Assembly (NCBI GenBank): GCA_030680855.1
Contig: JAUXUN010000001.1
Coordinates: forward strand, 1-49,694
Direction: 5' to 3'
Source: Aestuariivirga sp.
Lineage (GTDB): Bacteria; Pseudomonadota; Alphaproteobacteria; Rhizobiales; Aestuariivirgaceae
DNA length: 49,694 nucleotides
The translations under genes and the position numbers were made by a program. The notes under the pieces were generated by a model, which saw only the letters and a program-made list of their open reading frames with translations, was not told where the DNA came from and searched no databases. Position 1 is the stretch's first letter. Each line of letters begins with the position of its first letter. Of this stretch, positions 33,624 through 40,048 are shown piece by piece.

Positions 33624-34088
33624 ATGCCCGCAATTTCCATGAAAGTGAATGGCAAGGCGGTGAGCGGAAACGTCGAAAACCGCACGCTGCTGGTCGATTT
33701 TATCCGGACGAATCTGGGTCTTACCGGAACCCATGTGGGCTGTGATACCAGCCAGTGCGGGGCCTGCGTGGTCCACATTGACGGCAAGGCGGTCAAATCC
33801 TGCACCACGCTTGCGGTGGCCTGCGAAGGCGCCAGCGTTACAACCATCGAAGGCATCGCCAAGAACGGCACGCTGCATCCCATGCAGCAGGCTTTCCATG
33901 AGAATCACGGCCTGCAGTGCGGTTTCTGCACCCCCGGCATGATCATGGCCTCCATCGACATCGTGAAGCGCAATGGCAAGAAGGTGAGCGAGGAAGTTAT
34001 CCGCCGCGAGCTTTCGCAAAACATCTGCCGCTGCACGGGCTATCATAACATCGTGGCGGCGGTTCAGTCCGCAGCCGAAAAAATGTAA
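33624..34088 (+). CDS. coxS: molybdenum hydroxylase iron-sulfur subunit (form II CODH-like, CoxS)
   Basis: A 154-aa protein with the plant-type 2Fe-2S cluster ligands Cys40, Cys45, Cys48 and Cys60. The second, helical 2Fe-2S domain has Cys99, Cys102, Cys135 and Cys137 ([10 protein letters not shown] and CRCTGYHNI). It passes electrons from the Mo site to the FAD subunit. GGGAGG precedes the ATG. It is the first gene of coxSLMDEG, the gene order typical of form II. Confidence 0.93.
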
Positions 34089-34102
34089 CGGAGGCAAGCA
34101 AC

Positions 34103-36475
34103 ATGTCCGACACAGGAATTGGCGCGCGGGTGCTGCGCAAGGAAGACAAGCGGTTCATCACCGGCAAGGGCCAGTATACCGACGACATCAACCTGAAAGA
34201 CCAGACCTACGCGTATTTCGTGCGCAGCCCCCATGCCCACGCCACGATCAAAGCCATCAACACCGCCAAGGCCAAGAAGATGCCGGGCGTGGTCGATATC
34301 TTCACCTCCAAGGAAGTCGAGGAAGACAAGATCGGCGGGCTGATCTGCGGCTGGATGATCCATTCCAAGGATGGCTCCGGCATGAAGGCCGGGCCCCATC
34401 CCATACTCGCCAGCGGCAAGGTGCGCTTTGTGGGCGACCAGGTTGCCGTTGTCATCGCGGAAACCCGCGAACAAGCGAAGGCTGCTGCCCAGGCGGTTGC
34501 CGTTTCCTACGGCGTGCTGCCGCACAATGTGGATGCGGGCCAGGCGATGAAAACCAAGGCCCAGGTCCATGACGTGGCCTCCGACAACCGGGTTTACAAC
34601 TGGTCGATTGGCGACGAGGCGGCAACGGACGCCGCGTTCAGGTCGGCGGCGCATGTGACCAAGCTTGACCTCATCAACAACCGGCTCATTCCCAACGCCA
34701 TGGAAACCCGCGCCGCCATCGGTTCCTATGATACGGGCTCCGAGCACTACACGCTTTATACCACAAGCCAGAATCCGCATGTGGCGCGCCTTGTCATCTC
34801 GGCGTTCCATGGATTGGCGCCGGAACACAAGCTGCGCGTGATCGCGCCGGATGTGGGCGGCGGCTTCGGCTCCAAGATCTTCATTTATGGCGAAGAAGTC
34901 ACCTGCGTCTGGGCTTCCAAGCGCATCGGCGGCCGCCCCGTCAAGTGGACGGCGGACCGTTCCGAGGCCTTCCTGTCGGATGCCCATGGCCGCGATCACG
35001 TATCGCACGCGGAACTGGCGATGGATGCTTCGGGCAAGATCGTGGGCCTCAAGGTCCACACCATTGCCTCGATGGGCGCCTATCTCTCCACCTTCTCGTC
35101 CTGCGTGCCCACCTATCTCTATGCCACCCTGCTCTCGGGCCAGTACGACATTCCGAACATCTATGCGGAAGTTGACGCGGTTTACACCAACACCGCGCCG
35201 GTTGACGCCTATCGCGGCGCCGGGCGGCCGGAAGCCACCTATCTGCTGGAGCGCATCGTTGAAACGGCGGCGCGCGAATTGAAGATTGACCCGGCGGAAT
35301 TCCGGCGGCGCAATTTCATCACCCAGTTCCCGCACCAGACGCCAGTCATCTTCTGCTACGATGCGGGCGATTATGGCGCGGCGCTGGACAAGGCGCTGGA
35401 GCTTTCCGACTACAGGAACTTTGCTTCGCGCAAGGCGGCGTCCGCCAAGAACGGCAAGCTGCGCGGCGTGGGCTTCTCGGCCTATATCGAAGCTTGCGGC
35501 ATCGCTCCTTCGGCGGCGGTAGGTTCGCTGGGCGCCGGTGTCGGCCTCTGGGAATCGGCCGAGGTGCGGGTGAATGCGGTTGGAACTGTGGAAGTTCTCA
35601 CCGGTTCGCACAGCCACGGCCAGGGCCATGAAACGACCTTTGCCCAGCTTGTGTCGGAGCGGCTTGGGGTGGACATCAACAATGTGGCCATCGTCCATGG
35701 CGACACTGACAAGGTGCAGATGGGCATGGGCACCTACGGCTCGCGCTCGGGTGCGGTCGGCATGACGGCGATTTCAAAGGCCTTGGACAAGATCGAAGCC
35801 AAGGCGAAGCGGGTTGCGGCTGCCGTCATGGAAGCGTCAACCGACGACATCGACTTCAAGGACGGCACCTTCACGGTGAAGGGCACCGACAAGAAGATGG
35901 CCTTCGGCGAAGTGGCCCTTGCCTCTTACGTGGGCCACAAGTTCAACTCCTCGGAAATCGAGATCGGCCTTAAGGAAACCTCGTTCCATGATCCGTCGAA
36001 CTTCGTGTTCCCGGCGGGCGTCCACATCTGCGAAGTCGAGGTGGACACGGAAACGGGTCTGACCAAGATTGCGAGCTACACGGCGGTGGATGACTTCGGC
36101 ACGATCATCAATCCGATGATCGTCGAAGGCCAGGTGCAGGGCGGCGTGGCGCAGGGCATAGGCCAGGCGCTGCTTGAGGGAGCCCATTATGACCGTGACT
36201 CCGGCCAGCTGCTCACCGGTTCCTACATGGACTACAACATGCCCAAGGCGGCCAACATGCCGCATATCGAAAACTTCAAGCTGGGCTTCACCTTCACCAA
36301 GTGCCCCTCCAATCCATTGGGCATGAAGGGCTGCGGCGAAGCTGGAGCGATTGCCGCACCTCCCGCAGTGATCAACGCCATCACCAATGCCCTCGGCGTG
36401 CGCGACATTGCCATGCCGGCAACGCCGCTCACCGTGTGGAATGCCATGCAGCCCATGAAACGCGCCGCAGAATAA
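34103..36475 (+). CDS. coxL: molybdenum hydroxylase large subunit, form II carbon monoxide dehydrogenase-like (CoxL)
   Basis: A 790-aa xanthine-oxidase-family protein. The signature AYRGAGRPEA (about residues 369-378) marks form II, instead of the AYXCSFR loop with the Cu-binding cysteine of form I. GGGFGSK (about 253) binds the cofactor. GCGEAGAI (about 745-752) holds the catalytic Glu. Form II enzymes have been linked to CO oxidation in some species, but their main substrate is often unproven, so the substrate is left open. The gene lies 14 bp after coxS. Confidence 0.92.
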   Translation: MSDTGIGARVLRKEDKRFITGKGQYTDDINLKDQTYAYFVRSPHAHATIKAINTAKAKKMPGVVDIFTSKEVEEDKIGGLICGWMIHSKDGSGMKAGPHPILASGKVRFVGDQVAVVIAETREQAKAAAQAVAVSYGVLPHNVDAGQAMKTKAQVHDVASDNRVYNWSIGDEAATDAAFRSAAHVTKLDLINNRLIPNAMETRAAIGSYDTGSEHYTLYTTSQNPHVARLVISAFHGLAPEHKLRVIAPDVGGGFGSKIFIYGEEVTCVWASKRIGGRPVKWTADRSEAFLSDAHGRDHVSHAELAMDASGKIVGLKVHTIASMGAYLSTFSSCVPTYLYATLLSGQYDIPNIYAEVDAVYTNTAPVDAYRGAGRPEATYLLERIVETAARELKIDPAEFRRRNFITQFPHQTPVIFCYDAGDYGAALDKALELSDYRNFASRKAASAKNGKLRGVGFSAYIEACGIAPSAAVGSLGAGVGLWESAEVRVNAVGTVEVLTGSHSHGQGHETTFAQLVSERLGVDINNVAIVHGDTDKVQMGMGTYGSRSGAVGMTAISKALDKIEAKAKRVAAAVMEASTDDIDFKDGTFTVKGTDKKMAFGEVALASYVGHKFNSSEIEIGLKETSFHDPSNFVFPAGVHICEVEVDTETGLTKIASYTAVDDFGTIINPMIVEGQVQGGVAQGIGQALLEGAHYDRDSGQLLTGSYMDYNMPKAANMPHIENFKLGFTFTKCPSNPLGMKGCGEAGAIAAPPAVINAITNALGVRDIAMPATPLTVWNAMQPMKRAAE

Positions 36476-39463: not shown

Positions 39464-39484
39464 AACAGTGAAGGAAGTTGTAAA

Positions 39485-40048
39485 ATGAAAATGTCAGGCA
39501 GCCAGGTCATCGACGCGCCCCGCGAGGCGGTGTGGAAAGGCCTCAACGATCCAAAGGTGTTGCAGCAATGCATTCCGGGCTGCGAGAGCATCGTGGCCTC
39601 CTCGCCCACGCAGATGAGCGCCAAGGTGGTCTTGAAAATCGGCCCGGTGAAGGCCGCGTTCAAGGGTTCCGTCACCCTTTCCGACATCAAGGCGCCCGAG
39701 AGCTACCGGATTTCCGGCAAGGGCGAAGGCGGCTTTGCGGGCTTTGCCAGCGGCGGGGCCACGGTGAAGCTCACGGCGAACAGCCCGAGCGAGACCCTGA
39801 TGGAATATGACGTGGACGCGCAGGTCGGCGGCAAGATCGCCATGCTGGGTTCGCGCCTGGTTGACTCCACCGCGCAGTCACTGGCCAACCAGTTCTTCGA
39901 CAAATTCGCCACCGTGGTCAACCAGAGCGCTGCCGCGCCCAGGAAGCCAAAGGCCAAAGCGGTGAAGAAGCCGGCGAAAAAACCGGTGAAGGCGAAGAAG
40001 GTCGCGCCCAAGGCAAAGAAGAAAGCCACCAAACCGCGGAAGCGCTGA
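39485..40048 (+). CDS. coxG: CoxG-family carbon monoxide dehydrogenase accessory protein with Lys-rich tail
   Basis: A 187-aa protein. Residues 1-145 form the SRPBCC/START-like CoxG fold (MSGSQVIDAPREAVWKGLND, CIPGCESIVASSP, and the YRISGKGEGGFAGFASG strand). CoxG has been linked to membrane attachment and electron transfer for the Mo enzyme. The C-terminal 35-40 residues differ from usual: a repeat of PKAKAVKKPAKKP and similar histone H1-like Lys/Ala/Pro units replaces the common hydrophobic anchor. It follows coxE by 21 bp. Confidence 0.88.
   Translation: MKMSGSQVIDAPREAVWKGLNDPKVLQQCIPGCESIVASSPTQMSAKVVLKIGPVKAAFKGSVTLSDIKAPESYRISGKGEGGFAGFASGGATVKLTANSPSETLMEYDVDAQVGGKIAMLGSRLVDSTAQSLANQFFDKFATVVNQSAAAPRKPKAKAVKKPAKKPVKAKKVAPKAKKKATKPRKR

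What the first reader, a model, noticed from the sequence alone, without database searches (positions are those of the whole stretch)
33624..40048. Form II cox operon with a CoxG that ends in a histone-like Lys/Ala/Pro tail
The CoxL signature AYRGAGR shows form II, and all assembly genes coxD, coxE and coxG are present. CoxG normally ends in a hydrophobic anchor that brings the enzyme to the membrane. Here the tail is repeated PAKK/KAKK units. This suggests a different partner, such as anionic lipid, nucleic acid or an acidic protein, or a different electron route. The substrate of form II enzymes is often unproven.
Basis: partly seen in the sequence, partly recalled or inferred. Interest (0 to 1): 0.7.

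Follow-up and report, generated by a model that had tools for sequence, protein, structure and literature searches.

The report
CoxG with a polycationic membrane-docking tail
A helper protein of a carbon-monoxide-dehydrogenase-like enzyme carries a lysine-rich tail that was seen only in one bacterial family, and the enzyme subunit thought to pass electrons on is unusually positively charged in the same genomes, which suggests that the complex sticks to the membrane by charge and not by a greasy anchor.

Summary
33624-40048 is an intact form II operon, coxS-L-M-D-E-G. CoxG (187 aa) ends in 40 residues with 19 Lys/Arg, no acidic residue and no hydrophobic segment. It is not a frameshift: a 93% identical relative has the same kind of tail.

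The tail is not tied to form II. The same genome has a form I operon (YRCSFR) whose CoxG is also Lys-tailed. In Aestuariivirgaceae, 20 of 50 CoxG rows are Lys-tailed and 8 have a Lys-rich linker plus a hydrophobic anchor. Outside the family, 0 of 206 rows have either; anchored, tail-less and short basic-aromatic ends occur there. So a hydrophobic anchor is not universal.

New: the FAD subunit CoxM is basic where the CoxG tail is basic (+8 to +18, 24 genomes; otherwise +1 to +9, 11 genomes; contrasts r 0.64, p 3e-5). CoxL, CoxD, CoxE and three housekeeping controls show no link; CoxS a weaker one. This genome's form I CoxM is +14, against -17 to +3 in 22 others. This argues against CoxM as an acidic partner and fits docking on a shared anionic surface, most likely the membrane. 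Only four independent tail changes exist (sign test p 0.25). Nothing was tested at the bench.

The parts
33624..34088 (+). coxS, [2Fe-2S] subunit (154 aa)
   Evidence: Pfam Fer2_2 1.3e-31 and Fer2 5.9e-6
34103..36475 (+). coxL, form II molybdopterin subunit (790 aa)
   Evidence: Pfam MoCoBD_1/2; best PDB match 8uem CoxL 1.8e-168; form I cut-off of TIGR02416 not met
35207..35227 (+). form II active-site motif AYRGAGR (CoxL residues 369-375)
   Evidence: aligned to AYACSFR of M. smegmatis CoxL; position counted by hand from that alignment
36487..37284 (+). coxM, FAD subunit (265 aa), net charge +15
   Evidence: FAD_binding_5 7.3e-42 and CO_deh_flav_C 7.9e-7 on a slightly longer reading; start MENFNYHRP shared with relatives and charge computed
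37323..38252 (+). coxD, AAA+ ATPase
   Evidence: Pfam AAA_5 9.2e-11; MadB model 271.9 bits, below its cut-off of 475
38249..39463 (+). coxE, von Willebrand A domain protein
   Evidence: Pfam VWA_CoxE 6e-68
39485..39925 (+). coxG, SRPBCC (COXG) domain, residues 1-147
   Evidence: PF06240 1.8e-36; PDB 2pcs 1e-20 and CoxG 8uds 2.3e-8
39926..40045 (+). coxG Lys/Ala/Pro tail, residues 148-187, net charge +19, no hydrophobic anchor
   Evidence: the same kind of tail in 20 Aestuariivirgaceae CoxGs, this one included

Best explanation
The operon encodes a form II xanthine-oxidase-family dehydrogenase (CoxSLM) of unproven substrate, its maturation factors CoxD and CoxE, and CoxG. CoxG is an SRPBCC protein of the family that, for true CO dehydrogenases, brings the enzyme and the quinone pool together at the membrane. 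In this family a C-terminal membrane anchor has been replaced by a polycation of 37-96 residues, probably unfolded. It holds CoxG reversibly on the anionic inner face of the membrane by charge, and CoxM, the FAD subunit from which electrons leave, has become basic with it, so that CoxG and CoxM face the same polyanionic surface. The likeliest history is a Lys-rich linker in front of a hydrophobic anchor (still seen in sister genera) that lost the anchor; some species later lost the Lys tail as well. Shown: genes, tail, restriction to the family in the sample read, occurrence with form I and form II, co-occurrence of coxG with coxL, covariation of tail charge and CoxM charge. Inferred: the membrane as the anion, quinone shuttling, disorder of the tail, direction of evolution.
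For: Tail kept in kind (net +13 to +26; 0-4 acidic residues, none in 12 of 20) in 20 CoxGs of the family despite divergent sequence. Sister genera have the same AKK-rich stretch followed by a hydrophobic segment, 8 of 50 family rows; in the 7 of these 8 whose neighbours were compared a tgt-like gene lies next to coxG, as in many Lys-tailed and tail-less members (Tgt, QueA and GyrA of one locus confirmed). One clade for 44 family CoxGs is not rejected (p-AU 0.711). Elsewhere CoxG ends in hydrophobic anchors, in nothing, or in basic-aromatic ends such as KKKWWKFGKG that look like membrane-docking ends. CoxG occurs with CoxL: of 60 family genomes 44 have both, 13 neither, 3 one only (any CoxG match, any CoxL match at E <= 1e-80, both forms). 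CoxM net charge follows tail charge (35 genomes; Spearman 0.67; contrasts r 0.643, p 3e-5; equal branch lengths r 0.573, p 3e-4). CoxL, CoxD, CoxE and GyrA, QueA, Tgt do not. The form I enzyme of the same genome repeats it: CoxM +14 against -17 to +3 in 22 other form I operons. Literature, passages only: loss of O. carboxidovorans CoxG raises the generation time on CO from 21 to 149 h, and the paper, citing earlier work, reports no particulate enzyme in the mutant (PMC4240915); CoxG homologues bring a G3P dehydrogenase to the membrane (PMC11962113); CoxG described as menaquinone-binding, citing Kropp et al. 2025 (PMC13240472).
Against: No localisation or binding data. The CoxM link was found after looking at five subunits, and only four phylogenetically independent tail changes exist: three go the same way, none the other way, one does not differ; sign test p 0.25. 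G002 has no tail but CoxM +9, and the two ranges touch at +8 to +9. CoxS follows more weakly (contrasts r 0.446, p 0.014), and the CoxG core shifts the same way (Spearman 0.47). In form I CoxL is also less acidic (-11 against -19 to -40), so the shift is not confined to the flavin subunit; 19 of the 22 form I comparators are from other families. Tail-less species keep the operon, so the tail is dispensable in some settings. Basic partners would also arise if the tail binds a nucleic acid, or if CoxM must avoid sticking to the tail. In G009, G020, G003 and others coxG is not beside a complete coxSLM, so the partner is inferred.
Confidence: 0.5

Rival explanations
1. The tail is a remnant of a Lys-rich linker. 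Once the anchor was lost it evolves as low-complexity sequence with little function, and the SRPBCC domain does the work alone.
For: Tail lengths and unit order change fast; tail-less CoxGs coexist with form II coxL in the genus. 74 of 192 rows are tail-less.
Against: Net charge is kept at +13 to +26 with 0-4 acidic residues across 20 sequences, and CoxM charge follows it. Drift of the tail alone would not predict this.
Confidence: 0.22
2. The tail binds nucleic acid or polyphosphate, as histone-H1-like Lys/Ala/Pro tails of other bacterial proteins are thought to do, and places CoxG on the nucleoid or on granules.
For: PAKK/AAKK units resemble those of AlgP and PhaF (resemblance from recall; only titles and starts of abstracts seen, among them PMC9239181).
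Against: The CoxG roles in the passages read are at the membrane; sister genera put the same stretch before a hydrophobic segment.
Confidence: 0.15
3. The tail binds an acidic surface of the Cox enzyme or of another protein and tethers CoxG to it.
For: CoxD (-12) and CoxL (-9) are acidic in the window genome.
Against: CoxM becomes more basic, not more acidic, where the tail is basic. CoxL and CoxD charge does not follow the tail. In the form I operon of this genome CoxL and CoxM are both less acidic than in 22 others. A local acidic patch, or a protein outside the operon, was not tested.
Confidence: 0.1

Closest known systems
CoxG of form I CO dehydrogenase (Oligotropha carboxidovorans; CoxG of PDB 8uds)
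   Same: COXG/SRPBCC domain, in a cox gene cluster with coxD and coxE, expected role at the membrane
   Different: Here the C-terminus is a +19 polycation with no anchor, and the linked CoxL is form II without the active-site Cys motif
CoxG of sister genera of Aestuariivirgaceae (L056, L058, L059, L061, L062, L063, L070, L268)
   Same: The same AKK-rich stretch after the COXG domain; a tgt-like neighbour in the 7 compared
   Different: They end in a hydrophobic segment after the Lys-rich stretch
CoxG-like membrane anchors of Sulfolobus acidocaldarius G3P dehydrogenase (PMC11962113)
   Same: COXG-type protein that takes a soluble oxidoreductase to the membrane
   Different: Archaeal, other enzyme; tail not compared here
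Histone-H1-like Lys/Ala/Pro tails (AlgP, PhaF; from recall and a search listing)
   Same: Similar low-complexity repeat units
   Different: Attached to an SRPBCC domain in a redox operon, not to a granule or DNA-binding protein

Membership tests
CoxG (COXG, PF06240) | COXG SRPBCC domain above the gathering score | tested here: met
   125.4 bits against 22.2, residues 5-145
CoxG (COXG, PF06240) | genomic partner of a coxSLM-type enzyme | tested here: met
   follows coxE in the window; CoxG and a CoxL-type protein together in 44 of 60 family genomes, one without the other in 3, neither in 13
CoxG (COXG, PF06240) | membrane association | not testable with these tools
   no localisation data; no hydrophobic anchor in the sequence
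Form I aerobic CO dehydrogenase | CoxL active-site motif with Cys (AYXCSFR) | tested here: not met
   AYRGAGR instead
Form I aerobic CO dehydrogenase | TIGR02416 equivalog cut-off | tested here: not met
   622.5 bits against 991.15
Form II (CoxSLM-like) dehydrogenase | AYRGAGR motif and gene order S-L-M | tested here: met
   motif as the form II mark in a passage of PMC13240472, which adds that other molybdenum hydroxylases share it; the order as a mark is from recall
Form II (CoxSLM-like) dehydrogenase | oxidation of CO | not testable with these tools
   substrate unproven; a passage of PMC6794299 cites studies suggesting that CO is not the physiological substrate
Glyceraldehyde dehydrogenase (NF041018/19/20) | equivalog cut-offs | tested here: not met
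   660.6 against 790, 180.6 against 350, 217.7 against 290

The most novel reading that the evidence does not exclude
In Aestuariivirgaceae, CoxG has changed from a hydrophobic to an electrostatic membrane anchor, and the electron-exit subunit CoxM has acquired matching positive charge, in both the form I and the form II enzyme of one genome. That makes the CoxG-CoxM-membrane contact a charge-driven, reversible docking site that is readable from sequence.
Probability: 0.45. Interest if true: 0.66.

Novelty: new variant of a known kind. Interest (0 to 1): 0.52.

Why it matters
How Mo-dehydrogenases of the Cox type hand electrons to the quinone pool is still being worked out, and CoxG is central to it. 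A natural series within one bacterial family (hydrophobic anchor with Lys linker, Lys tail, no tail), with a charge shift in the partner subunit, gives a genetic handle on which surface of the enzyme meets CoxG and the membrane, and a test by salt and lipid composition.

Tried and rejected
Frameshift or assembly error: rejected. Form II-specific tail: rejected by the Lys-tailed form I CoxG of the same genome. A DNA tandem repeat that makes the tail: none scored. A compensating anchor on CoxS, L, M, D or E where CoxG has no Lys tail: nothing of the kind (19 loci, 5 of them without a long Lys-rich tail; last 18 residues of each protein and the highest 19-residue hydropathy, up to 1.6, were looked at; coxD or coxE is missing or cut in some). 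General proteome basicity as cause of the CoxM shift: not seen in GyrA (15 genomes), QueA (26), Tgt (27), CoxL, CoxD, CoxE; the GyrA set is small, and on those 15 genomes the CoxM contrasts alone give p 0.08. The first CoxM charges included residues upstream of the conserved start; recomputed, and the result stayed. Acidic CoxG core as a counterpart of basic CoxM: the core goes the same way as the tail (Spearman 0.47). Gene neighbours as a clue to substrate: a GbdR-like regulator stands before coxS in the window (740 bits to itself); in 18 other coxL loci only weaker hits were found, 177-235 bits, in 7 of them, on the strand of coxS and roughly 1-5 kb upstream. So the link is neither shown nor excluded; not followed further. 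Literature: no hit for CoxG with lysine-rich or Aestuariivirga with carbon monoxide dehydrogenase in the held open-licence library; the Kropp et al. paper was not found under the DOI that I recalled.

Rows left out: of 103 match rows (my count), 21 were not fetched (fragments and weak, distant matches); two of these contigs were read later (L269, L270) but their CoxG pieces are incomplete and were not classed. In one search, 2 of 192 rows were truncated, and 2 Lys-tail rows (L113, L114) repeat L041 and L043. The 206 outside rows (140, 66) include repeats between sets and one truncated row. The class search matched 139 of 289 genomes and the phylum search 55 of 299; only part of those matches was read (30 loci, the 26 new loci L293-L318, and 40 further regions). 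The named search kept 80 loci of 580 confirmed stretches, itself a capped list. The CoxL searches covered 60 of the 69 family genomes, and the CoxM table 35 of these 60. In one search the form I CoxGs L033, L045, L087, L094 and the distant L109 were set aside so that the tail paired with form II CoxM is the other copy.
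Full report
The operon. Reading frames and Pfam give coxS, coxL, coxM, coxD, coxE and coxG on the plus strand at 33624-40048, closely spaced. CoxL has AYRGAGR where M. smegmatis CoxL has AYACSFR, and the form I model is missed by a wide margin. It is a form II enzyme, and its substrate is not known; a passage of PMC6794299 cites studies suggesting that CO is not the physiological substrate of such enzymes. CoxG is a COXG/SRPBCC protein by Pfam and by similarity to PDB 2pcs and 8uds.

The tail. Residues 148-187 have 19 Lys/Arg, no Asp/Glu and no hydrophobic segment. 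It is far beyond the composition of the operon and is the most Lys-rich stretch in the open frames of the window. The other frames offer no hidden anchor, and the closest relative has the same kind of tail. The tail is real.

Who has it. The genome belongs to Aestuariivirgaceae: contig G042:C5 of the same family has the length and match position of a Taklimakanibacter lacteus contig. The genus of the window, perhaps Aestuariivirga, is an inference. The family search covered 69 genomes. I classed 192 CoxG rows (split by source) and 66 more. In the family, 20 of 50 rows are Lys-tailed (19 genomes), 8 have a Lys-rich linker followed by a hydrophobic segment, 17 are tail-less, 2 have short basic ends, 2 amphipathic ends, 1 is truncated. 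Outside the family, 0 of 206 rows are of the first two kinds; they are anchored, tail-less, or end in short basic-aromatic or other tails. These rows are a sample, with repeats.

Not a form II trait. The window genome has a second CoxG in a form I operon (YRCSFR, order M-S-L-D-E then G), 71% identical to the window CoxG and also Lys-tailed. Both CoxGs lie in one clade of 11 rows, 10 of them Lys-tailed (SH-aLRT 99). In that clade coxG sits behind coxE, in front of coxS, in a form I operon, or with no cox gene in the stretch read. Many other family genomes carry coxG beside genes of the tgt, queA and gyrA families, away from their form II operon (families confirmed on one locus). Yet CoxG and CoxL occur together: of 60 family genomes 44 have both, 13 neither, 2 only CoxG (fragmented assemblies) and 1 only CoxL (79% complete). 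Both forms of CoxL and distant CoxG matches are counted there, and kinship is not corrected for.

History. Eight sister-genus CoxGs have the same AKK-rich stretch and then a hydrophobic segment. The tree of 147 columns is poorly resolved, but one clade for the 44 family CoxGs tested is not rejected (p-AU 0.711, the constrained tree being the better one found), and the tgt neighbourhood is shared by Lys-tailed, Lys-plus-anchor and tail-less members. A Lys-rich linker that lost its anchor, followed by tail losses in Taklimakanibacter and in part of the genus, explains this with few events. Separate gains are not excluded; on the unconstrained tree the two Lys-bearing groups lie apart.

Charge of the partner. 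While testing whether an acidic Cox subunit could hold the tail, I found the opposite. In 35 family genomes with a classed tail and a nearly complete CoxM, CoxM net charge is +8 to +18 where the tail is basic (24 genomes: 17 Lys-tailed, 5 with linker and anchor, 2 with short basic ends) and +1 to +9 where it is not (11 genomes); Spearman 0.67, independent contrasts r 0.643, p 3e-5, and p 3e-4 with equal branch lengths (with the corrected CoxM start). CoxL, CoxD and CoxE show no such link and CoxS a weaker one (r 0.446, p 0.014); GyrA, QueA and Tgt show none. Apart from two Lys-tailed loci, 56 other CoxM-like rows near CoxG run from -18 to +8. The form I CoxM of the window genome is +14, against -17 to +3 in 22 other form I operons. 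One of these is G010, whose form I CoxG is of the same clade but has no tail (CoxM +1). Three of the 22 are from the family, the rest from elsewhere, and the form I CoxL of the window genome is also less acidic than theirs. The weak side: the link was found after the fact, and the tree holds only four independent tail changes, of which three agree, none disagrees and one shows no difference; a sign test cannot reach significance.

Mechanism. CoxG of O. carboxidovorans is held to take the enzyme to the membrane (passages of PMC4240915), archaeal CoxG-like proteins do so for another enzyme (passages of PMC11962113), and CoxG is described as quinone-binding (passage of PMC13240472; the primary paper was not available). 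With that background, two basic elements, the CoxG tail and CoxM, in a complex that must meet the quinone pool point to the anionic membrane as the common partner. That step is inference. Nucleoid or polyphosphate binding, and a tail without function, stay open.

Verdict. A real variant of CoxG, specific to one family in the sample read, not a new system. The covariation of CoxG tail and CoxM charge is the part worth following.

Noticed in passing
window 24885-33418: A sarcosine-oxidase-type operon (soxB and soxA family models over their cut-offs, soxG below its cut-off), an MTHFR-domain gene on the minus strand (31349-32341) and a GbdR-like AraC regulator (32435-33418; 379.5 bits, below the GbdR cut-off of 480) lie just upstream of the cox operon.
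   Followed up: partly
L257, L259, L260, L261, L265, L271, L272: In 7 of 18 other coxL loci a weaker GbdR-like regulator hit (177-235 bits) lies on the strand of coxS, roughly 1-5 kb upstream. It could be a recurring regulator of form II operons or chance.
   Followed up: no
L254 (G016:C123) compared with window 33624-39463: CoxL scores 1714 of 1786 bits (95% identical) but CoxE only 677 of 901 and CoxM 500 of 604, and no coxG was found behind coxE: the operon looks mosaic.
   Followed up: no
L040-L093, many family loci: coxG stands in a conserved housekeeping neighbourhood with tgt-, queA- and gyrA-family genes, away from the cox operon.
   Followed up: partly
L079 (G076:C4): Two coxG genes in tandem in front of coxS-coxL, one with a hydrophobic anchor and one without.
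   Followed up: no
L121, L122, L127, L155: CoxG with a short basic-aromatic stretch followed by a hydrophobic segment with a Cys-Cys pair (VCCIG, ACCLG): a tail type of its own.
   Followed up: no
window 40563-41321: Stf0-type sulphotransferase (6.5e-87) downstream of coxG, after a gap of about 500 bases.
   Followed up: no
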